A stretch of DNA of 64,000 nt from Betaproteobacteria bacterium GR16-43 (lineage in GTDB: Bacteria; Pseudomonadota; Gammaproteobacteria; Burkholderiales; Usitatibacteraceae), in the NCBI GenBank assembly GCA_001953215.1, contig CP019169.1, positions 1,674,001 through 1,738,000 on the forward strand, read 5' to 3'. Shown here piece by piece: positions 1 to 9,556 of this stretch. The first letter of the stretch is position 1, and every line of letters begins with the position of its first letter. The position numbers and the translations under genes were made by a program. The notes beneath the pieces were generated by a model. It worked only from the letters and a program-made list of their open reading frames with translations. It made no database searches and had not been told where the DNA came from.

Positions 1-1294
1 CATGGAGTGCCAGGCCGTTGCCGATGGCCGCCATCGCGAATTCGCGCACGCCGTAGTAGACGTAGTTGCCCGCTTCCTTCGCGGTGACCGCCTTCGTGCC
101 CGACCAGTTGGTCAGGTTGGAGCCGGTCAGGTCCGCGCTGCCGCCCAGGGCTTCGGGCAGCACCGGGGCCAGGCCCTCGATCGCGAGCTGCGAAGCCTTG
201 CGCGTGGCGACGGTCTCGGCTTTCTCGTTCGACTTCGCGAGCAGGGCCTCGGCCGCGGCCTTCCAGCCCGCGGGCAATTCGTTGGCCATGCGGCGGCGGA
301 ACTCGCGGGCGAGTTCGGGGAAGGCCTTTTCGTAGTCCGCGAACTTCGCCTTCCACTCGCTTTCGAGCGCCTTGCCGCGGGCACGCTGGTCCCACGCCGA
401 ACGCACGGCTTCGGGAATCTCGAACGGGGGGTGCTTCCAGCCGATCGCCTCGCGCGTGGCGGCGACTTCCTTCTCGCCCAGCGCGGCGCCGTGGACGCCG
501 TCGGTGCCCTGCTTGTTGGGCGAGCCCTTGCCGATCACCGTCTTGCAGCAGATGAGCGTGGGCTTCGCGGTGTCGGCGCGTGCCTCGGCGATCGCGGCCT
601 CGACCGCCTTCGGGTCGTGGCCGTCCACGTTCGGGATCACGTTCCAGCCGTACGCGGCGAAGCGCATCGGCGTGTTGTCGGTGAACCAGCCCGCGACCTT
701 GCCGTCGATCGAGATGCCGTTGTCGTCGTAGATCGCGACGAGCTTGCCGAGGGCCAGCGTCCCGGCGAGCGAGCACGCCTCGTGCGAGAGGCCTTCCATC
801 AGGCAGCCGTCGCCGACGAAGACGTAGGTGTGGTGGTCGACCACCGTGTGCCCCGGGCGGTTGAACTGCGCGGCGAGCAGCTTCTCCGCGAGCGCCATGC
901 CCACGGCGTTGGCGAGGCCCTGGCCCAGCGGGCCCGTGGTGGTCTCCACGCCCGGCGTGATGCCGACTTCGGGATGGCCCGGCGTGCGCGAATGCAGCTG
1001 CCGGAACGCCTTGATGTCTTCGATGGTGAGGTCGTAGCCCGTGAGATGCAGCAACGCGTACTGGAGCATCGAGCCGTGGCCGTTGGAGAGCACGAAGCGA
1101 TCGCGGTCGGGCCACGCGGGGTTCGACGGGTTGTGGCGCAGGATCCTTCGCCACAGCACTTCGGAGATTTCCGCCATGCCCATCGGCATGCCCGGGTGCC
1201 CGGAATTGGCCTTCTGGACGGCATCCATCGCGAGGGCGCGGATGGCATTCACGAGATCGGGATACGAAGCGGTGCTCACGGGCGAATCGGGCAT
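1..1294 (-). CDS. tkt: Transketolase, C-terminal end cut off by the window edge
   Basis: Thiamine-diphosphate enzyme of the non-oxidative pentose phosphate pathway (cytosol). It moves two-carbon ketol units between sugar phosphates. I translated the minus strand from an ATG at 1294 and obtained 431 codons without a stop before the edge. The N-terminal third carries the family hallmarks [14 protein letters not shown] (about residue 24), [29 protein letters not shown], and the ThDP/Mg motif [13 protein letters not shown]. The central domain ends in [19 protein letters not shown] at the edge. The usual length is about 660 aa, so roughly a third is missing. No good Shine-Dalgarno (SD) precedes the ATG; an in-frame GTG at 1279 is possible but would trim the N-terminus. 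It is transcribed divergently from speD. rpiA, another pentose-phosphate gene, lies about 6 kb away. Confidence 0.95.
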
Positions 1295-1345
1295 GGGAGG
1301 GGGTTTCGGCTGTAACGGCGGCGGAGGGGAACTGAGCGAAAAAAC

Positions 1346-1376
1346 TTGTGCGGGGCAGGAAATATGCCATTATACT
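1346..1376 (+). promoter_or_regulatory. Possible sigma-70 promoter for speD
   Basis: A good -10 hexamer TATACT (1371-1376) follows a weak TTGTGC (1346-1351) with a long 19-nt spacer, in an AT-richer stretch about 170 nt before the speD start. The spacer is suboptimal, so the -35 match may be fortuitous. It would leave a 5' leader of about 165 nt that contains the hairpin at 1452-1487. Confidence 0.35.
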
Positions 1377-1451
1377 TTCGCACTTTTTTCGCGCGATATT
1401 TTTCGCTTGGGTAAACCTCTGCAGCAAGGATTTCCACCGCTAAGCGCCTGA

Positions 1452-1487
1452 GGGCGATCCCGCTTCTTACCGAGAAGCGAGACGCCC
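1452..1487 (+). other. Hairpin in the speD 5' leader
   Basis: CGCTTCT (1461-1467) pairs perfectly with AGAAGCG (1473-1479) across a 5-nt loop. The outer GGGCG (1452-1456) pairs with CGCCC (1483-1487). No U-tract follows, so this is not a simple terminator. It lies 60 nt before the speD start. I recognise no known riboswitch. Confidence 0.5.
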
Positions 1488-1546
1488 GGAACCGGCGATG
1501 GGAAGTCCGCCCCTGCAGAATTTGCTTGATAAGGAGGGGTATCGAA

Positions 1547-1957
1547 GTGAAGGGACTGCACATCATCGCCGACCTGTACGGCTGCCGGAACAGCGAAATG
1601 CTCACGTCGTCGGGAAAGCTGCGCGAAGCCTGCGTGGCCGCCTGCAAGGACGTCGGGCTTACCGTCCTCGGGGACAACTTCTACCAATTCGACGGACTGG
1701 ACGCCACGCAGTTGGGCGGATCCACGGGAACCGTCGTCTTCGCGGAATCGCACCTGGCGATCCATACCTGGCCTGAACGCAGCGGCGCCACGCTCGATGT
1801 GTACGTCTGCAACGTCACATGCGACAACAGCGGCAAGGCGGAGAGGCTCTACGAGCTGCTCGTCGCCCACCTGAAGCCCGCCGACGTGATGGTCGAGCGC
1901 GTGTGGCGCGGCCGGGACCTGCCGGTGAAGAAGAAGCGCCTCGCGGCGGTCAAGTAA
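1547..1957 (+). CDS. speD: S-adenosylmethionine decarboxylase proenzyme
   Basis: Decarboxylates S-adenosylmethionine to give the aminopropyl donor for spermidine (cytosol). The protein is about 136 aa, the size of the short prokaryotic SpeD class. The self-cleavage site AESHLAIHTWPE is intact; Ser68 (codon 1748-1750) should become the pyruvoyl cofactor. C-DLYGC and the DVYVCNV strand are also typical. I chose the GTG at 1547 because a near-perfect SD (AAGGAGG, 1531-1537) lies 9 nt before it. The in-frame TTG at 1526 would put that SD inside the gene. A GC hairpin follows, then speE 40 nt later, so the two genes supply one pathway. Confidence 0.95.
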   Translation: MKGLHIIADLYGCRNSEMLTSSGKLREACVAACKDVGLTVLGDNFYQFDGLDATQLGGSTGTVVFAESHLAIHTWPERSGATLDVYVCNVTCDNSGKAERLYELLVAHLKPADVMVERVWRGRDLPVKKKRLAAVK

Positions 1958-1965
1958 CAGCCTCG

Positions 1966-1989
1966 AAGGCCCCGCGGAAGCGGGGCTTT
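1966..1989 (+). terminator. Hairpin between speD and speE (weak terminator or translational control)
   Basis: GCCCCGC (1969-1975), GGAA loop, GCGGGGC (1980-1986), extended by AAG/TTT to 10 bp and followed by only TTTC. The short U-run suggests partial termination at best. The structure ends 8 nt before the speE ATG and occupies the place where an SD would lie. Confidence 0.55.
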
Positions 1990-1997
1990 CTCCATCC

Positions 1998-2843
1998 ATG
2001 ACCGAAAAGATCTTCGAGCGCCTCACGGACGCGAGCGGCGTCTACTTCGACGGCACCCTCGTCGAGCGCCGGCGCACGCCCTTCCAGCTCCTCGAGGTGT
2101 ACGACACGCCCGAGCTGGGGCGCATCTTCCGCCTCGACGGCTTCAACATGACGTCCGAGCGCGACGAGTTCTTCTACCACGAGAGCCTCGTGCATCCGGC
2201 CGCCGCCGCGCACCCGGATCCGAAGCGCGCGCTCGTGATCGGCGGGGGCGACGGGGGCTCCTCCGAGGAACTGCTCAAGCACGCGACGATGCAGCAGGTC
2301 CACATGGCCGAGCTCGACCCCGAAGTGATCGAGGTGTCGAAGGCGCAGTTCGCGAAGGTGCACGGCGGCGTGTTCGACAACCCGAAGCTGAAGGTGACGG
2401 TGGGCGACGGGCTTGCGTACCTGCGCGCGACCGAAGCGCGCTACGACCTCGTGGCGATGGACCTCACCGATCCGGTCGGGCCTTCGATGGAGCTCTACTC
2501 GCCGGCGACCTTCGCGCTCGCCAAGCGCGCGATGGCGCCCGGGGCTGCGCTCGTGCTGCACCTGGGCTCGCCTTTCTCGCACGCGGAACGCGTGCGCGCT
2601 ACGATGGGGAACCTCCGCCAGGTCTTCCGCGTCGTGGCGCCTTACTTCGTGCACATCCCGGTCTACGGTTCCATCTGGGGCTTCGCCGTCGCCTCGGACC
2701 ACCTCGATGCGCGCTCCGTGACGCCGGAAGACATCGATGCGCGCCTCGCGAAGCGCGGCGTCGGCGGACTGCAGTACTACAACGGCGAGATCCACCGCGC
2801 GGTCTTCGCGCAACCCAACTACGTGCGCAAGCTCCTCGCCTGA
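1998..2843 (+). CDS. speE: Spermidine synthase (polyamine aminopropyltransferase)
   Basis: Transfers the aminopropyl group of decarboxylated AdoMet to putrescine (cytosol). 281 aa, the standard length. The N-terminal beta-hairpin region is followed by a Rossmann methyltransferase-like fold with VIGGGDGGSSEELL (about residue 77), the adenosyl-binding acidic residue in MAELDPEVIE, GDGLAYL, and the catalytic Asp region AMDLTDPVGPS. The end, QYYNGEIHRAVFAQPNYVRKL, matches bacterial SpeE. No SD precedes the ATG; a GC hairpin lies there instead. It is followed 21 nt later by a DUF1190 gene with a strong SD. I infer that speE and the three following genes form one functional unit. Substrate choice (putrescine versus another diamine) cannot be read from the sequence. 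Confidence 0.95.
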   Translation: MTEKIFERLTDASGVYFDGTLVERRRTPFQLLEVYDTPELGRIFRLDGFNMTSERDEFFYHESLVHPAAAAHPDPKRALVIGGGDGGSSEELLKHATMQQVHMAELDPEVIEVSKAQFAKVHGGVFDNPKLKVTVGDGLAYLRATEARYDLVAMDLTDPVGPSMELYSPATFALAKRAMAPGAALVLHLGSPFSHAERVRATMGNLRQVFRVVAPYFVHIPVYGSIWGFAVASDHLDARSVTPEDIDARLAKRGVGGLQYYNGEIHRAVFAQPNYVRKLLA

Positions 2844-2864
2844 AGGCGAGTGAAGGAGGAGGCG

Positions 2865-3257
2865 ATGCTCCGGAAACTCCGCAAGTCCTCGGGGAAGGTG
2901 ACGCTGGTCCTGATCGGCGTCGCCGCCCTGGCCGGTTGCAGCGGCGGCGAGAAGCGCGACGTCTACGCCTCGAAGGAAGACTGCCTCGCCGACTGGGGCA
3001 ACAAGCCCGAGGAATGCACGCCCGCCACCGACAGCAAGAACGCCGGCCGCGGCTTCTACTACGGGCCTTTGTACGCGGCTGCCGGGTACGCGGCCGGAAG
3101 CTACCTCGGGGGCAACAGCTGGGGCCGCTCCACCGGGACGTTCTCCTCGGCGCGCGCCTCCGGTGCGACGAGCCGCGCGATCGGATCGAGCGGATCGTCT
3201 TCGCGCGGCGGCTTCGGCTCGACGGGACGCTCGTCGTCCTCGTCGTCGGGCGGCTGA
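2865..3257 (+). CDS. DUF1190 (YgiB/YjfM-like) lipoprotein
   Basis: 130 aa. An N-terminal lipoprotein signal ends ALAGC, so the mature protein should begin at this Cys and be lipid-anchored in the envelope. Then come KRDVYASKEDCLADWG and a second Cys, typical of the YgiB/YjfM family. The C-terminal half is Gly/Ser/Arg rich (GSSGSSSRGGFGS and a Ser run) and likely disordered. I chose ATG 2865, with AAGGAGG at 2853-2859, over the GTG at 2850. Its stop codon abuts the next gene. In E. coli, ygiB pairs with ygiC and yjfM with yjfC, the same partnership as here. The biochemical role is unknown. Confidence 0.85.
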   Translation: MLRKLRKSSGKVTLVLIGVAALAGCSGGEKRDVYASKEDCLADWGNKPEECTPATDSKNAGRGFYYGPLYAAAGYAAGSYLGGNSWGRSTGTFSSARASGATSRAIGSSGSSSRGGFGSTGRSSSSSSGG

Positions 3258-4382
3258 TTGAAGCGCCACGACCTCATCCCGCGCGCCGACTGGCCCCGCA
3301 AGGTGGAGGAACTCGGATTCCACTTCCACTCGATGGACGGCGTCTATTGGGACGAGCGCGCGTACTACGAGTTCAGCGAACGCGAAGTCGACACGCTGGA
3401 GGCCGCGACCCTCGAGCTGAACGAGCGCTGCCTCGAAGCCGTGGGACGCGTGATCGACCGGGGCGACTTCGCGCGGTTCCAGGTCCCGGAGGCGTTCCAC
3501 AAGCTCATCCGGGACTCCTGGGCGGACGAGGAACCGTCGCTCTTCGGCCGCTTCGACCTTTCGTGGGACGGGAACGGCGAACCGAAGCTGCTCGAGTACA
3601 ACGCCGACACGCCCACCGCGTTGCTCGAGGCCAGCGTGGTGCAGTGGTACTGGCTGCAGGACGTCTTCCCCGATCGCGACCAGTTCAACTCGCTGCACGA
3701 GAAGCTGGTCGAGCGGTGGAAGGCGATCGCCGACAAGGTGCCGGGCGACCGCGTGGTGCACTTCACCGGCGTGACCGACAGCGACGAGGACCAGGGCAAC
3801 CTGGACTACCTGCGCGACACCGCCACGCAGGCCGGGCTGCAGGCCGAGGCGATCGACATCGCCGACATCGGCTGGAACGGCAAGCGCTTCACCGACCTCG
3901 ATGAGCGGCCGATCGCCGTGCTGTTCAAGCTCTACCCGTGGGAGTGGCTGGTGCGCGAGGAATTCGGCGCCCATCTCGCGGAGCGAGCCGTGCTCGTGGT
4001 CGAGCCCGCCTGGAAGATGCTGCTCACCAGCAAGGCGATCCTGCCGGTGCTCTGGGAGATGTTCCCGGACCATCCCAACCTGCTCGCCGCGAGTTTCGAG
4101 CCGGGACGCTTCGCCACCGATTTCGTGAAGAAGCCGATCTACTCCCGCGAGGGCGCCAACGTGTCGATCACCGCGGGCGGGCGCACGCTGGAGGCGCCGG
4201 GCGGCTACGGCGCCGAGGGTTTCATCTGGCAGGCTTACCACGAGCTGCCGCGCTTCGGCGCCAACCACACCGTGATCGGGTCGTGGATCGTGGGCCGCGA
4301 ACCCGCGGGCATCGGCCTGCGCGAAGACGATTCCCCGATCACGAAGAATTCAAGCCGTTTCGTACCCCACTGCTTCACCTGA
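3258..4382 (+). CDS. ygiC: Glutathionylspermidine synthase-like ATP-grasp ligase (YgiC/YjfC family)
   Basis: 374 aa, the size of the stand-alone synthetase-like family; the amidase domain of classical GspS is absent. It should form an amide bond, probably between a carboxylate or peptide and a polyamine, using ATP in the cytosol. Supporting motifs are WPRKVEELGFHFHSMDG..YWDE at the N-terminus, LLEYNADTPTALLEASV, and PWEWLVREEFG. The start is a TTG directly after the preceding stop; the N-terminus then aligns with what I recall of YgiC (M-x-R...RxDW). From memory, E. coli YgiC/YjfC showed no glutathionylspermidine synthetase activity, so the true substrates are open. Its place after speD-speE supports a polyamine substrate (inference). 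Confidence 0.88.
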   Translation: MKRHDLIPRADWPRKVEELGFHFHSMDGVYWDERAYYEFSEREVDTLEAATLELNERCLEAVGRVIDRGDFARFQVPEAFHKLIRDSWADEEPSLFGRFDLSWDGNGEPKLLEYNADTPTALLEASVVQWYWLQDVFPDRDQFNSLHEKLVERWKAIADKVPGDRVVHFTGVTDSDEDQGNLDYLRDTATQAGLQAEAIDIADIGWNGKRFTDLDERPIAVLFKLYPWEWLVREEFGAHLAERAVLVVEPAWKMLLTSKAILPVLWEMFPDHPNLLAASFEPGRFATDFVKKPIYSREGANVSITAGGRTLEAPGGYGAEGFIWQAYHELPRFGANHTVIGSWIVGREPAGIGLREDDSPITKNSSRFVPHCFT

Positions 4383-4416
4383 TCGCCGACGAACAACAAA
4401 CAGGAAGGATTGCCCC

Positions 4417-4827
4417 ATGCGACACGTGATGGACTCTTTCGCCGGATTCGACAATTTCCTCGTCTACCTGGCGCTTTCGCTGGTCCTGCTGGCCGCGTTC
4501 GTCGCGCTCTACGTGCGCATCACGCCGCAGAAGGAGTTCGCGTTGATCCGCGAGGGCAACATCGCCGCCTCCTTCAGCCTCTCGGGCGCGATCCTCGGCT
4601 TCGTGATCCCGCTGGGTGCTTCGATCCGCTTCAGCGTGAGCCTGGTCGACATGGCGATCTGGGGCGTCATCGCGCTCGCCGTGCAGATCGCCGCCTTCGT
4701 CGTGGTGCGCCTCATGGTGCCCACGATCTGCGACGACATCGCGAAGGGCAACGGGGCGCAGGGCTTCTTCCTGGGCTCCACCGCGCTCGCCGTGGGGCTG
4801 CTGAACGCCTCCTGCATGAGCTTCTAG
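4417..4827 (+). CDS. DUF350 (YjfL-like) inner-membrane protein
   Basis: 136 aa with four predicted membrane helices: about residues 12-33, 45-65, 74-97 and 112-133. The SD AGGAAGGA (4403-4409) precedes ATG 4417. The pattern GNIAASFSLSGAILGFVIPL and the paired-helix repeat are typical of DUF350/YjfL. In E. coli yjfL lies next to yjfM (DUF1190) and yjfC, so this is the third member of that trio. Role unknown; I infer a membrane channel, anchor or substrate-presenting component for the polyamine conjugate. It is the last gene of the polyamine unit and sits 5 nt before rsmE. Confidence 0.85.
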   Translation: MRHVMDSFAGFDNFLVYLALSLVLLAAFVALYVRITPQKEFALIREGNIAASFSLSGAILGFVIPLGASIRFSVSLVDMAIWGVIALAVQIAAFVVVRLMVPTICDDIAKGNGAQGFFLGSTALAVGLLNASCMSF

Positions 4828-4832
4828 GGCCG

Positions 4833-5567
4833 ATGGGCCAGCCGCGCATCTTCGTCGACGTGAAGCTCGGGCCCGGGGCACAGTTCTCCCTGGCCGCCGA
4901 CGCGGCGAACCACGTCGGCAAGGCCCTGCGCCTGAAGACCGGCGACACCATCACCGTCTTCGACGGCCGCGGCGGCGAATACGACGCGGTCATCCTGCGC
5001 ATGGACAAGGAAGACGTCGACGTGAAGACCTCGGGCTTCCACGACGTCGATCGCGACTCGCCCGTCTCCGTGGGGCTGGTGCAGGGGCTGCCCGAAGCCG
5101 ACAAGATGGACTGGATCATCCAGAAGTCGGTGGAGCTGGGCGTGGCGTGGATCCAGCCCATCGTGTGCGACCGCAGCGTGGTGCGCCTCGCGGGCGATCG
5201 CGCGGCGCGGCGTGAAGCGCACTGGAAGCGCGTGGCCGTCGCGGCCTGCGAACAGTGCGGACGCAATCGTGTTCCCGAAGTGCGGCCCACGCTGGGCTTC
5301 ATCAACTGGGTGGCCCTTCCGCCCCCGGAGGCCGCGCGCTGGATGCTGGCCCCGGACGGCGTACCGCTCGCCACGCGTGCGGCGCCCGCATTGCCGGTCG
5401 AATTGCTCGTGGGGCCCGAAGGCGGCCTTTCCGAGCGCGAACGCGAGCTCGCGCATTCGCGCGGCTTCGAAGCGACGGGCCTCGGCCCGCGCGTGCTCCG
5501 CACCGAGACGGCGCCGCTCGCCGCGCTCGCTGCCATCCAAACCCTCTGGGGCGACCTCTCCCGCTAG
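4833..5567 (+). CDS. rsmE: 16S rRNA (uracil-1498-N3) methyltransferase
   Basis: SPOUT-class enzyme that methylates U1498 of 16S rRNA (cytosol, on the 30S subunit). 244 aa, normal for the family. It has an N-terminal PUA-like region (NHVGKALRLKTGD), the conserved GLVQGLPEADKMDWIIQKSVELGV, and the SAM-binding knot GPEGGLSERE...LGPRVLRTETA. The ATG at 4833 gives the usual N-terminus MGQPRIFVD. It is closely spaced between the DUF350 gene and argA (7 nt), so it is probably cotranscribed. Confidence 0.95.
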   Translation: MGQPRIFVDVKLGPGAQFSLAADAANHVGKALRLKTGDTITVFDGRGGEYDAVILRMDKEDVDVKTSGFHDVDRDSPVSVGLVQGLPEADKMDWIIQKSVELGVAWIQPIVCDRSVVRLAGDRAARREAHWKRVAVAACEQCGRNRVPEVRPTLGFINWVALPPPEAARWMLAPDGVPLATRAAPALPVELLVGPEGGLSERERELAHSRGFEATGLGPRVLRTETAPLAALAAIQTLWGDLSR

Positions 5568-5574
5568 AACCGAC

Positions 5575-6906
5575 ATGGCCACCAAGACCAAGCCCGCGTT
5601 GAAGACCGAAGCGTTCGTGAAGTGGTTCCGCGCGGCCACGCCCTACATCCACCAGTTCGGCGGCGGCACGTTCGTCATCGCCTTCGGAGGAGAAGTGCTG
5701 GCCGACGGCGAGTTCGCCCAGCTCACCCACGACATCAACGTGCTGATGAGCCTGGAGGTCCGCGTGGTGCTCGTGCACGGCACGCGCCCGCAGATCGAGG
5801 AGCAGATGCGCCAGCACGGCGTGGAGCCGCGCTACGTGAACAACCGCCGCGTCACCGACGACCGAGCGCTCGCCTGCGTGAAGGAAGCCAACGGCATCGT
5901 GCGCGTCGAGATGGAGGCGCAGCTCTCGGTGGAGCTGGCCAACTCGCCCATGTGGGGCGCGGACATCCGCGTGTCGTCGGGCAACTTCGTCACCGCGAAG
6001 CCCGTGGGCGTGGTCGACGGCGTGGACTTCCAGCACACCGGCGAGGTGCGCAAGATCGACGCCGAGGGCATCAAGCGCCGGCTCGACGACCACGAGGTGG
6101 TGCTGATTTCGCCGCTGGGCTTTTCGCCGACCGGCGACGTCTTCAACTGCACCCTCGAGGACGTGGCCACGCAGACCGCCATCGCGCTGAAGGCCGACAA
6201 GCTGATCTTCCTCACCGAGACGATGGGCGCGCCGGACGCCAAGGGCCGCCTCATCTCCGAGCTCATCGTGCCGGAGGCCAAGCGCCTGCAGGAGTCCAAC
6301 AGCCTTCCCGAGGACATCCGCATCTACCTGCCGTGCGCCATCAAGGCGTGCGAGGCGGGCGTGAAGCGCTCCCACCTCGTCTCCCGCCACACCGACGGAG
6401 CCCTGCTGATCGAGATCTTCACCAGTCATGGCATCGGCACGATGGTCGTGCCCGAGTCGCCCGAGCGCATCCGCGGCGCCACGCTGGAGGACGTGCCGGG
6501 CATCGTCCAGATCCTGGAGCCCCTCGAGCAGCAGGGCGTGCTGGTCCCGCGCGAGCGCGCGCAGCTCGAGCGCGAGATCGGCAACTTCTTCGTGATCGAG
6601 GCCGACGGGAACATCCTGGGCTCGGCCGCGCTCTATCCTTTCCCGGAAGAGAAGACCGCCGAGCTGGCCGCCGTGGCGGTGAACCCGTTCTATCGCGACG
6701 GCGGGCGCGGCGAACGCCTGCTGGCCCACGCGGAAGCGCAGGCCCGGTCGAAGGGGCTGAAGACGCTCTTCGTGCTCTCGGCGCGCACGACGCACTGGTT
6801 CCTCGAGCGCGGTTTCGTCGAGGCGGACCTCGCCCGGCTGCCGGAGAGGAAGCAGTCCCTCTACAATTACGACCGGCGTTCCAAGATTTTCGTGAAGGAC
6901 TTGTAG
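5575..6906 (+). CDS. argA: N-acetylglutamate synthase
   Basis: First step of arginine synthesis: acetyl-CoA plus glutamate gives N-acetylglutamate. 443 aa with the classical two-domain layout. An amino-acid-kinase-like domain (about residues 20-285; [29 protein letters not shown]) carries arginine feedback control in this family. A GNAT acetyltransferase domain follows (about 295-440; [29 protein letters not shown]). Having this classical ArgA suggests, but does not prove, a linear or mixed acetyl cycle. The remaining arg genes (argD, F, G) are 24 kb away. Confidence 0.95.
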
Positions 6907-6916
6907 GAGCAATGCG

Positions 6917-7186
6917 ATGGCCAGGATGATCCAGTGCGTGAAGCTGAAGAAGGAGGCCGAGGGCCTCGATTTCCCCCCGTACCCGGGCGAACTCGGCAAG
7001 GAGATCTACGAGAAGGTCTCGAAGGAAGCCTGGAAGGGCTGGACCGAGCACCAGAAGATGCTGGTGAACGAGAACCGCCTTTCGGGCGCCGACCCGAAGG
7101 CTCGCGAGTACCTGCGCGAGCAGATGAAGCGCTACCTCTTCGGTGAGGGCGCGGACGTCGCCTCCGGCTACGTGCCTAAGAACTAG
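6917..7186 (+). CDS. yggX: Fe(2+)-trafficking / oxidative-damage protection protein
   Basis: 89 aa. [24 protein letters not shown] and the C-terminal MKRYLFGEG are diagnostic for YggX. The single Cys lies in MIQCV. In enterobacteria it protects Fe-S enzymes and takes part in iron handling in the cytosol. It starts 10 nt after argA; TAGGAGC overlapping the argA stop supplies the SD. A 158-bp palindromic repeat begins just after its stop. Confidence 0.93.
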
Positions 7187-7190
7187 GTCA

Positions 7191-7348
7191 AAGGCGGAAG
7201 GCGTCCTCCGCAGATAAACGCAGATAAACGCCGATGACCCCCTCGAGCAAACAAGAAGAGCCTTTGGGTTTAACCCAGAGCTTTGTCTTTGCTGCAGGAG
7301 TTCATCGGCGTTTATCCGCGTTTATCTGCGGAGAGCGCCTTTCGCCTT
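7191..7348. repeat. Large palindromic repeat, copy 1
   Basis: The left arm (7191-7237) and right arm (7302-7348) are about 47 nt each and pair with only four or five mismatches. Each contains the motif CGCAGATAAACGC. The 64-nt centre has its own palindrome GGGTTTAACCC (7266-7276) and AGCAAA/TTTGCT pairs. The copy at 35900-36040 matches it across arms and centre. It fills the gap between the convergent genes yggX and rpiA, and the rpiA stop codon overlaps its right end. It could act as a bidirectional terminator or RNA-stabilising stem. No target-site duplication or coding capacity is visible. Confidence 0.85.
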
Positions 7349-8009
7349 AGGCTTTTCGCGTCTCAACCCCGCCAGGGGTTCCGAGCAGGAGGATGTCGGC
7401 GGGCCGCCGGGCGAAGAGCCCGTTCGTGACGACGCCCGTGACCTGGTTCAAGTCGGTCTCCAGCTTCACCGGATCGGTGATCGAAAGCCCGTGCACGTCG
7501 AGGATCACGTTGCCGTTGTCGGTCTTCACGCCCACGCGGTACTCGGGCTGGCCGCCGGTGAGTGCCACGATCTCGCGGGCCACGTAGCTTCGCGCCATCG
7601 GGATCACCTCCACCGGCAGCGGGAATTTTCCGAGCACGTCCACGAGCTTCGATCCGTCGGCGATGCAGACGAACTGCCGGCTCGCCGCGGCCACGATCTT
7701 CTCGCGCGTGAGCGCGGCACCGCCGCCCTTGATCATGCGCAGGTGGCGGTCCACCTCGTCGGCGCCGTCGATGTACACGTCGCAGGTCGTGGCGTCGTTC
7801 AGTTCCAGCACTTCGATCTTCGCCGCGCGCAGGCGCTGGCTGCTCGCCTCGGACGAGGAAACCGCGCCCTTCAACTGGATGCGGCTCGCCGCGAGCGCGT
7901 CGATGAAGCAGTTCACCGTGGAGCCCGTGCCGACGCCCAGCATCATCCCGTCGCGCACGTACTTCAGCGCCGCCTCGCCCACGAGCTTCTTCAGTGCGTT
8001 CTGGTCCAT
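7347..8009 (-). CDS. rpiA: Ribose-5-phosphate isomerase A
   Basis: Interconverts ribulose 5-phosphate and ribose 5-phosphate (pentose phosphate pathway, cytosol). 220 aa from ATG 8009, which aligns with the usual N-terminus (M-x-Q-x-x-LKKxVGxAAL). Motifs are [44 protein letters not shown], and the C-terminal [15 protein letters not shown]. An in-frame GTG at 8027 would add six residues and has an AAGGA six nt upstream, whereas ATG 8009 has no SD. The translated start is therefore uncertain. It is divergent from ilvA with only 35 nt between ATGs. Its TAA lies in the end of the palindromic repeat. Confidence 0.95.
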
Positions 8010-8044
8010 GGGCGGAGGATAACCCACTGGTATCCTTGCAGCTT

Positions 8045-9556
8045 ATGAAGGACGACTACCTCCAGAAAATCCTCGCGGCCCGCGTCTACGACGTGGCCAT
8101 CGAAAGCCCGCTCGACCTGGCGCCCGCCATTTCGAAGCGCATGGGCAACCACCTGCTGCTCAAGCGCGAGGACAAGCAGCCGGTCTTCTCCTTCAAGCTG
8201 CGCGGCGCGTACAACAAGATGGCGCACCTGTCGAAGGCCGCGCTCGAACGCGGGGTGATCTGCGCCAGCGCGGGCAACCATGCGCAGGGCGTGGCACTCG
8301 CCGCCCAGAAGCTCGGCACGGATGCGACCATCGTCATGCCGGTCACCACGCCGCGCATCAAGGTGACGGCGGTCTCGGCGCGCGGCGCGAAGGTCGTCCT
8401 CCAGGGCGACAGCTACCACGAGGCCAACGCGCACGCGCGCAGCCTCGCCCGCAAGCACGGCCTCACCTTCGTGCACCCGTACGACGATCCGCTGGTGATC
8501 GCGGGCCAGGGCACCATCGGCATGGAGATCCTGCGCCAGCACGCGAAGCCCATCGACGCGATCTTCGTCCCCGTCGGCGGCGGCGGCCTGATCGCCGGCA
8601 TCGCCGCGTACGTGAAGCGCGTCTCGCCGCGCACCCGCATCATCGGCGTGGAGCCCGAGGACTCGAATGCGATGGCCGCCTCGCTGAAGGCGGGCAAGCG
8701 CGTGACGCTGCCGCACGTGAACCTGTTCGCCGACGGCGTCGCGGTGCGCCAGGTCGGGAAGGAAACGTTTCGCCTCGCGCGGAAGCTCGTCGACGAGATG
8801 GTGCTGGTCGACACCGACGAGATCTGCGCCGCGATCAAGGACATCTTCGAGGACACGCGCACGGTCGTCGAGCCGTCGGGCGCGCTGGCGCTGGCCGGGG
8901 CCAAGCGCTGGGCCGCGCGGCGCAAGGCGAAGGGCAAGACCCTCGTGGCGATCGCGTGCGGCGCGAACATGAACTTCGACCGCCTGCGCTTCGTCGCCGA
9001 GCGCGCCGAGCTGGGCGAGCATCGCGAAGCGGTCCTGGCCGTCACGATTCCCGAGGAACCCGGCAGCTTCCGCACGCTCTGCGAAGTGCTGGGCAAGCGC
9101 AGCGTGACCGAATTCAACTACCGCTACGCCGACGATCGCGCGGCCCACGTGTTCCTGGGCCTCTCGGTCGCGGGGCGCGAGGAGACCGAGCGGCTGGTGG
9201 CCACGCTCGCGCGGCGCGGCATGAAGCCGGTCGACCTGTCCGACAACGAGCTGGCGAAGCTGCACGTGCGCCATCTCGTCGGCGGCCGCTCGCCCGCGCG
9301 CTCGGGAGAGATGCTGTATCGCTTCGAGTTTCCCGAACGCCCGGGCGCGCTGATGAATTTCCTCACGCACATGGGCTCGGGCTGGAACATCACGCTCTTC
9401 CACTACCGCAACCACGGCGCGGACGTCGGCCGCGTGCTGGTGGGCCTGCAGGTGCCCGAAAGCGAGCGCGGAGCGTTCCGCCGGTTCCTGCGCGATCTCG
9501 GCTACGACTACACCGACGAAACGCGCAACCCCGCTTACCGGCTCTTCCTGCGATGA
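8045..9556 (+). CDS. ilvA: Threonine ammonia-lyase, biosynthetic (long form)
   Basis: PLP enzyme converting threonine to 2-oxobutanoate, the first step to isoleucine (cytosol). 503 aa. The catalytic domain covers about residues 1-320 with the PLP lysine in SFKLRGAYNKM, SAGNHAQGVA, and the phosphate-binding GGGGLIAGIA. It is followed by two ACT-like regulatory repeats (about 335-410 and 430-500; EEPGSFRTLCEVLG and ERPGALMNFL). These imply feedback inhibition by isoleucine, as in the family. Start ATG 8045 has no clear SD. The stop overlaps the ATG of the next gene (ATGA). Confidence 0.95.
   Translation: MKDDYLQKILAARVYDVAIESPLDLAPAISKRMGNHLLLKREDKQPVFSFKLRGAYNKMAHLSKAALERGVICASAGNHAQGVALAAQKLGTDATIVMPVTTPRIKVTAVSARGAKVVLQGDSYHEANAHARSLARKHGLTFVHPYDDPLVIAGQGTIGMEILRQHAKPIDAIFVPVGGGGLIAGIAAYVKRVSPRTRIIGVEPEDSNAMAASLKAGKRVTLPHVNLFADGVAVRQVGKETFRLARKLVDEMVLVDTDEICAAIKDIFEDTRTVVEPSGALALAGAKRWAARRKAKGKTLVAIACGANMNFDRLRFVAERAELGEHREAVLAVTIPEEPGSFRTLCEVLGKRSVTEFNYRYADDRAAHVFLGLSVAGREETERLVATLARRGMKPVDLSDNELAKLHVRHLVGGRSPARSGEMLYRFEFPERPGALMNFLTHMGSGWNITLFHYRNHGADVGRVLVGLQVPESERGAFRRFLRDLGYDYTDETRNPAYRLFLR

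What the first reader, a model, noticed from the sequence alone, without database searches (positions are those of the whole stretch)
1547..4827. A polyamine-conjugation unit: speD, speE, DUF1190 lipoprotein, GSPS-like ligase, DUF350 membrane protein
Seen: five same-strand, close-packed genes join AdoMet decarboxylase and spermidine synthase to the YjfM-YjfC-YjfL trio. Known: E. coli keeps the trio without spe genes, and the ligases there lack the GspS amidase half. I also recall comparative-genomic predictions linking such ligases to polyamine genes. Inference: spermidine made on the spot is ligated to a peptide, lipid or other acceptor and delivered through the DUF350 protein to a surface lipoprotein. 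This is my best candidate for an under-described system.
Basis: partly seen in the sequence, partly recalled or inferred. Interest (0 to 1): 0.75.

Follow-up and report, generated by a model that had tools for sequence, protein, structure and literature searches.

The report
Spermidine ligase with tagged lipoprotein partner
The five genes are real and belong to a partly known bacterial system in which an enzyme attaches spermidine to peptides; comparing many genomes suggests that its natural target is the tail end of the lipoprotein encoded next to it, which can be tested directly in E. coli.

Summary
In detail: speD, speE, a DUF1190 lipoprotein, a stand-alone GSP_synth ligase and DUF350 lie close-packed on the + strand at 1547-4827. 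The outline is in print: E. coli YgiC/YjfC are reported peptide-spermidine ligases (Pederick 2023, title seen only), and ligase-DUF350-DUF1190 operons with polyamine genes were catalogued (Ravi 2024). The speDE link is local: 6 of the 80 nearest ligase loci, all with transketolase upstream of speD.

New here: the lipoprotein beside the ligase ends in a linear tail, R-G-G-F-G plus 7-27 residues, often ending Gly-Gly. A tailed protein lies on the same strand within 0.7 kb of the ligase in 78 of 81 loci. Among Pseudomonadota it lies near 89 of 93 stand-alone ligases (14 by a looser motif, 8 at 2.4-5.2 kb), but near 0 of 14 full-length glutathionylspermidine synthetases. A divergent ligase clade has a lipoprotein of different body with R-S-G-F-F-G...GG (4 of 4). 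Best-supported reading: the tail's C-terminal carboxylate is the ligase's acceptor, giving a lipoprotein capped with spermidine. This is inferred, not shown. The main difficulty is topology: conjugation would have to precede export.

The parts
1547..1957 (+). speD, class 1b S-adenosylmethionine decarboxylase (E-S-H site in ...FAESHLAIHTWPE; role of the motif recalled)
   Evidence: only AdoMet_dc match in the genome
1998..2843 (+). speE, aminopropyltransferase / spermidine synthase
   Evidence: best of five Spermine_synth matches in the genome
2850..3257 (+). DUF1190 lipoprotein: lipobox Cys (residue 30), Cys pair (45, 56), disordered Gly/Ser linker, C-terminal tail
   Evidence: invariant L19 C30 C45 C56 R119 G121 F122 G123 in 23 sequences; predicted fold
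3204..3254 (+). codons of the C-terminal tail R-G-G-F-G-S-T-G-R-S-S-S-S-S-S-G-G (residues 119-135), proposed recognition motif and acceptor carboxylate
3258..4382 (+). stand-alone GSP_synth ATP-grasp ligase, YgiC/YjfC type, TTG start, no amidase domain
   Evidence: (7uk8 E=2e-113, 7uk6 E=5.8e-95)
4417..4827 (+). DUF350 (YjfL) membrane protein, four long helices in two similar halves
   Evidence: similarity of the halves weak

Best explanation
The ligase recognises the C-terminal linear tail of the DUF1190 lipoprotein made from the gene directly before it. It activates the tail's C-terminal carboxylate with ATP and joins it to an amine of spermidine, which SpeD and SpeE make from decarboxylated AdoMet and putrescine. 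The lipoprotein is then exported and anchored with a polycationic cap at its free end, probably to neutralise or bridge anionic envelope sites; DUF350 may act at the membrane step. Shown: the genes, family membership, conserved catalytic residues, the tail and its frequent pairing with stand-alone ligases. Reported for the E. coli homologues: peptide-spermidine ligase activity (title only). Inferred: that the tail is the acceptor, that conjugation precedes export, and the envelope role.
For: A tailed protein on the ligase's strand in 78 of 81 loci, 73 of the 78 within 150 nt; shuffling the last 50 residues of those 78 proteins gives a mean of 0.8 matches, at most 5. Phylum survey: near 89 of 93 stand-alone ligases, 0 of 14 full-length GspS. 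A divergent ligase clade pairs with a lipoprotein of other body but R-S-G-F-F-G...GG, 4 of 4. A profile trained without the tail finds proteins of which 59 of 59, 10 of 11 and 60 of 76 carry the strict tail. Gly-Gly ends 37 of 78 against a shuffled mean of 6.4, maximum 16; 71 of 78 post-motif tails have no Asp/Glu, so the C terminus is their only carboxylate. The tail does not need DUF350: 27 of 30 loci without a DUF350 profile hit have it. E. coli YjfM and YgiB end RGGYG...WGG and RGGFG...MGG. Catalytic residues are kept while six positions of the acceptor region differ together from GspS (five stand-alone and two GspS sequences; roles recalled). The tail is predicted disordered. Precedent: SUMO and ubiquitin C termini are joined to spermidine (PMC12270671).
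Against: No conjugate has been seen. The lipoprotein has a lipobox, while I saw no export signal on the ligase, so modification must precede export; localisation was judged by eye and by a crude hydropathy scan that flagged neither protein. Last residues vary: of 78, 39 end in Gly and 5 in none of G/S/A/T. AdoMet decarboxylase is not enriched in ligase genomes (8 of 13 against 211 of 370). L090 keeps the partner with a decayed motif; L023 and L039 lack a visible partner. 14 of the 89 rest on a looser motif accepted after looking, and 8 more lie 2.4-5.2 kb away, 6 of them on the other strand. Shuffles ignore shared ancestry, and the first regex was widened for two variants.
Confidence: 0.6

Rival explanations
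1. The tail docks the lipoprotein to the ligase (or to DUF350) as a regulatory or localisation signal, while the real acceptor is a small peptide or metabolite, giving a soluble peptidyl-spermidine.
For: The E. coli enzymes are reported to have peptide-spermidine ligase activity (reference titles) and are called 'peptidylpolyamine synthetases'. Terminal residues vary.
Against: Gly-Gly is enriched at the very C terminus and Asp/Glu are rare in the tail, expected of an acceptor but not of a docking site. For DUF350 docking: 27 of 30 loci without a DUF350 profile hit still carry the tail (some loci are short).
Confidence: 0.2
2. RiPP-like: the tail is modified and then cut off, releasing a short spermidine-capped peptide; the lipoprotein is the precursor carrier.
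For: A short conserved segment follows a disordered linker, as in precursor peptides.
Against: None of the five genes matches a protease family, and the Cys domain is conserved too.
Confidence: 0.08
3. The tail is an envelope motif (for example an outer-membrane or peptidoglycan contact) that merely shares an operon with the ligase; speDE is ordinary spermidine synthesis that happens to lie beside it.
For: speDE linkage is confined, in the 80 loci, to one syntenic betaproteobacterial arrangement; two relatives in the same order have SpeD-SpeE fusions without the ligase.
Against: The tail occurs on two different protein bodies but tracks stand-alone ligases and was not found beside GspS.
Confidence: 0.12

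Closest known systems
E. coli YjfL-YjfM-YjfC and YgiB-YgiC (peptide--spermidine ligases; PDB 7uk6, 7uk8)
   Same: Ligase over its full length, catalytic residues, DUF1190 partner with R-G-G-[FY]-G...GG tail; DUF350 in the yjf operon
   Different: speD and speE are in the same run here; no PspA, DUF2170 or DUF2491 gene among the five
PspA-linked SpermGS-ATPgrasp operons (Ravi 2024, PMC11237479, passages read) and AdoMet decarboxylase gene linkages (Li 2019, cited there, not read)
   Same: ATP-grasp ligase, DUF350, DUF1190, polyamine genes
   Different: The passages read call DUF1190 a metal-chelating lipoprotein and do not mention the tail; the window has a five-gene version without PspA
Bifunctional glutathionylspermidine synthetase/amidase (E. 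coli Gss, 2io7) and trypanothione synthetase
   Same: Synthetase domain; catalytic residues shared with Gss
   Different: No amidase domain here; positions 335, 337, 392, 441, 539 and 610 of Gss differ in the five stand-alone ligases aligned; no tailed lipoprotein beside GspS in the loci examined
SUMO/ubiquitin-spermidine conjugation (PMC12270671, abstract and passages read)
   Same: A protein C-terminal carboxylate joined to spermidine with ATP (works-like only)
   Different: E1/E2 enzymes, shown in eukaryotes, not an ATP-grasp ligase; no kinship claimed
P. aeruginosa PA4773-PA4775 surface spermidine (PMC3572637, abstract and passages read)
   Same: speD- and speE-like genes and an envelope polyamine
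   Different: Said there possibly to bind electrostatically; no ligase in the passages read; PA4774 was later identified as a thermospermine synthase (PMC11107197, passages read)

Membership tests
YgiC/YjfC stand-alone peptide-spermidine ligases | Full-length sequence relationship to YgiC and YjfC | tested here: met
   7uk8 383 bits over residues 1-373, 7uk6 322 bits over residues 1-372
YgiC/YjfC stand-alone peptide-spermidine ligases | ATP-grasp catalytic residues kept (Gss R316 D318 E330 N332 K498 K533 R538 R598; roles recalled) | tested here: met
   identical in all seven sequences aligned
YgiC/YjfC stand-alone peptide-spermidine ligases | Ligation of spermidine to a peptide | not testable with these tools
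   reported for the E. coli enzymes, title only seen
Bifunctional GspS | N-terminal amidase domain | tested here: not met
   374 aa, only PF03738 found
Bifunctional GspS | Acceptor-region residues S335 S337 E392 T441 C539 D610 (roles recalled) | tested here: not met
   T, T, D, L, E, R in the window ligase
DUF1190 (PF06693) | Curated Pfam cut-off | tested here: met
   22.4 against 22 bits for the predicted protein; 21.3, just under the cut-off, when searched in the genome
DUF350 (PF03994) | Curated Pfam cut-off and helical membrane fold | tested here: met
   122 against 26 bits; hydrophobic segments; predicted helices, pLDDT 95
AdoMet decarboxylase class 1b (SpeD) | TIGR03330 cut-off and E-S-H cleavage site | tested here: met
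   80.3 against 75.65; motif in sequence; role of the motif recalled
Spermidine synthase (SpeE) | NCBIfam equivalog cut-offs | tested here: inconclusive
   NF002010 met (294/260), TIGR00417 not met (210/250); substrate not tested

The most novel reading that the evidence does not exclude
A widespread bacterial protein-modification system: stand-alone GSP_synth ligases cap the C terminus of dedicated lipoproteins with spermidine (or another polyamine), reading a portable R-[GS]-G-F-(F)-G...(G)G tag found on lipoproteins with different bodies. It would be a bacterial counterpart of -GG C-terminal conjugation, with speDE-linked loci a self-supplying version.
Probability: 0.5. Interest if true: 0.87.

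Novelty: new variant of a known kind. Interest (0 to 1): 0.7.

Why it matters
The natural acceptor of YgiC/YjfC-type ligases and the role of YgiB/YjfM (DUF1190) are open questions as far as the passages I could read show. The tail gives a specific candidate acceptor, a predicted mass shift, and a test in E. coli K-12. If true, bacteria covalently attach a polyamine to envelope lipoproteins, which bears on surface charge and envelope stress, where PspA-linked versions of the operon were reported.

Tried and rejected
Considered and dropped: (1) speDE linkage as the core of the system: all 6 linked loci have transketolase upstream of speD (within 0.5 kb in five, 3.6 kb in L010) and 5 of 6 have rsmE downstream, so it looks like one old locus, although linked ligases fall in three subclades of a 22-leaf clade in one FastTree run. 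(2) An attenuator: the hairpin between speD and speE is strong in the window (-23.2 kcal/mol, z -4.3) but the corresponding stretches of L005, L006 and L025 fold no better than shuffles; the terminator scan did not list it and Rfam gave nothing for window 1-9000. (3) DUF350 function from structure: confident model, no PDB match at E 0.001. (4) Tail on wholly unrelated proteins: L011, L029 and L096 are multi-helix proteins with a DUF1190-like end, so they look like fusions; only the clade of L128-L131 has a body that matched neither my DUF1190 profile at E 1e-3 (which scanned the same genes in L099-L102) nor, for the one searched, Pfam at E 1. (5) Counts as first printed were corrected by eye: L180 and L248 and L039 are chance ORFs; 14 partners were accepted with looser motifs after inspection.

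Literature: 'RGGFG' with 'lipoprotein' found 0 papers. The listings of searches showed none about the tail, but most listed papers were not opened. Pederick 2023, Li 2019, Sui 2012 and Iyer 2009 are not held, so they may already mention it.
Full report
What is there. Five genes lie on the + strand of a one-contig 4.8-Mb genome (nearest named relatives are Burkholderiales and Betaproteobacteria assemblies). They are speD 1547-1957, speE 1998-2843, a DUF1190 lipoprotein 2850-3257, a stand-alone GSP_synth ligase 3258-4382 and DUF350 4417-4827. The ligase starts with TTG directly after the lipoprotein's stop codon. The genome has one match to the ligase family and one to AdoMet decarboxylase. It also has matches to decarboxylase families that include ornithine and arginine decarboxylases, so putrescine and spermidine synthesis is plausible.

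What is known. The best solved relatives are E. coli YgiC (7uk8) and YjfC (7uk6), E 2e-113 and 5.8e-95. RefSeq names both 'peptide--spermidine ligase'. I saw the supporting paper (Pederick 2023) only as a reference title. A 2025 paper states that YgiC does not have the glutathionylspermidine synthase activity, citing Sui 2012 (passage). Ravi 2024 (PMC11237479, passages) describes operons with an ATP-grasp ligase related to glutathionylspermidine synthetase, DUF350, a 'metal-chelating lipoprotein (DUF1190)', PspA and, in variants, AdoMet decarboxylase, and credits Li 2019 with noticing the link.

How general is the speDE link? In L009, L010 and L022 both domains are in one open frame. In all 6 transketolase lies upstream of speD on the other strand (3.6 kb away in L010, within 0.5 kb in the others), and in 5 of 6 rsmE lies downstream, so this looks like one orthologous locus. 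SpeE identity to the window runs from 43 to 79%, so the arrangement is old. In the class sample, AdoMet decarboxylase occurs in 8 of 13 genomes with a YgiC/YjfC-type ligase and in 211 of 370 overall, so no enrichment is seen. Of the six such genomes whose speD position was listed, only the window's is adjacent to the ligase. Two genomes of the same order (G198, G284) have SpeD-SpeE fusions and no ligase match.

The tail. Printing the partner lipoproteins showed a shared C-terminal segment, R-G-G-F-G followed by a short Gly/Ser-rich end. I first used a regex on all 6,814 ORFs of 81 loci. After widening it for two variants, 78 of 78 partner proteins match (74 DUF1190-profile hits plus four more divergent neighbours), that is 78 of 81 loci; L023 and L039 show no partner and L050 is cut by its contig end. 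All 78 are on the ligase's strand, 73 within 150 nt and the farthest at 676 nt; 75 are upstream. Shuffling the last 50 residues gives a mean of 0.8 and at most 5 of 78. The segment after the motif is 7-27 residues, most often 10-11. It ends Gly-Gly in 37 of 78 (shuffled mean 6.4, maximum 16 in 2000), ends in G/S/A/T in 73 of 78 (shuffled mean 57.7, maximum 70), and lacks Asp/Glu in 71 of 78. These shuffles do not correct for shared ancestry. In 23 aligned relatives the invariant columns are L19, the lipobox C30, C45, C56, R119, G121, F122 and G123. E. coli YjfM and YgiB have the tail. Of 30 loci without a DUF350 profile hit, 27 have the tail, so it does not track DUF350.

Is the tail tied to the ligase? 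Class sample, 370 genomes: 21 have PF03738, and all 11 genomes with a DUF1190 match are among them, including G000, whose match is 21.3 bits against a cut-off of 22. I class 13 ligases as YgiC/YjfC type: 11 have a tailed neighbour; one (G124) has it on another contig; one (G252, L090) has a DUF1190 partner whose motif reads R-G-I-A-G. Four ligases of a divergent clade are preceded by a lipoprotein with another body and the tail R-S-G-F-F-G...GG, 4 of 4. It matched neither my DUF1190 profile nor, for the one searched, Pfam at E 1. The other four of the 21 (two full-length GspS, L103 and L104; L105; and a fragment, L106) showed no tailed neighbour.

Phylum sample, 397 genomes, 101 with PF03738. 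I examined 107 ligase places (L146-L252), leaving out 8 places already held from earlier searches. By a length-and-score rule 93 are stand-alone and 14 full-length GspS. A strict tail lies on the same strand near 67 stand-alone ligases (the script's 68 includes a chance ORF in L180); 14 more have a looser form accepted by eye; 8 more have a tailed DUF1190-type protein 2.4-5.2 kb away, 6 of these 8 on the other strand, one found only at E 0.88 and accepted for its tail. That makes 89 of 93; the exceptions are L227, L235, L243 and L252 (a fragment). For GspS the count is 0 of 14 (one chance ORF, L248). Control: a profile trained on partners with the tail cut off finds proteins of which 59 of 59, 10 of 11 and 60 of 76 carry the strict tail in the three ORF sets (training sequences come from these sets). 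Strict matches on the opposite strand were 4 against 70 on the same strand.

The enzyme side. In an alignment of the window ligase with YgiC, YjfC, Gss, two ligases of the divergent clade and one GspS, the catalytic positions of Gss are kept in all seven. Positions 335, 337, 392, 441, 539 and 610 change together between the two GspS and the five stand-alone ligases, including the divergent clade. The roles of these residues are from memory. This fits one common acceptor site that is not the glutathione site.

Mechanism proposed. SpeD and SpeE supply spermidine. The ligase captures the new tail of the lipoprotein made from the preceding gene, phosphorylates its C-terminal carboxylate and joins it to spermidine. 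The lipoprotein is exported and anchored by its lipidated Cys, with a small Cys-paired domain, a disordered linker and a cationic end (model confidence is low outside residues 31-70). The chemistry has a eukaryotic parallel in SUMO-spermidine (PMC12270671, abstract and passages). An envelope role is suggested by PspA-linked operons and, loosely, by surface spermidine in P. aeruginosa (PMC3572637, abstract and passages). Only gene content and conservation are shown; the conjugate is inferred.

Weak points. Export topology, judged by eye; variable last residue; no AdoMet decarboxylase enrichment; loosened motifs in 14 cases and distant partners in 8; no genome-wide scan for the tail away from ligases; and key biochemical papers unread.

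Verdict. The five-gene arrangement is a minimal variant of a known group. The tail-ligase pairing was not met in the literature searches listed under Tried and rejected, and it makes the acceptor question testable.

Noticed in passing
G000:C1:465714-467278 (L127 5517-7303): A second, half-length DUF350 lies beside a 556-aa frame with a C-terminal spermidine-synthase domain, resembling the membrane-fused aminopropyltransferase-DUF350 clusters in Ravi 2024; the window's speD is the genome's only AdoMet decarboxylase match and may serve both.
   Followed up: partly
L009, L010, L022, L118, L119: SpeD-SpeE in one open frame; L118 and L119 come from genomes of the same order in which no GSP_synth ligase matched.
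   Followed up: partly
L011 6796-7998, L029 2559-3758, L096 2617-3930: About 400-aa multi-helix membrane proteins ending in a DUF1190-like segment with the tail R-G-G-F-G-F...GG, directly before the ligase.
   Followed up: partly
L128 8328-9008 and the matching genes of L129-L131: Lipoprotein with a Gly-rich hydrophobic stretch and tail R-S-G-F-F-G...GG beside a divergent GSP_synth clade; no Pfam family for the one searched.
   Followed up: partly
window 4417-4827: DUF350 looks internally duplicated (long helix, short helix, helix, twice); profile comparison of the halves is weak (probability 21%) and no PDB fold matches.
   Followed up: partly
window 1965-1990: Strong GC-rich hairpin between speD and speE (z -4.3); the corresponding stretches of L005, L006 and L025 do not fold better than shuffles, so it is not conserved.
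   Followed up: yes
L166 1075-1464, L178 2142-2468: Second small DUF1190-like ORFs with G-F-G-G-T and a His/Gly-rich end near ligase loci.
   Followed up: no
L235, L243: Divergent stand-alone GSP_synth ligases without a tailed partner in view; L235 follows a DUF3109-like gene (below that family's cut-off).
   Followed up: no
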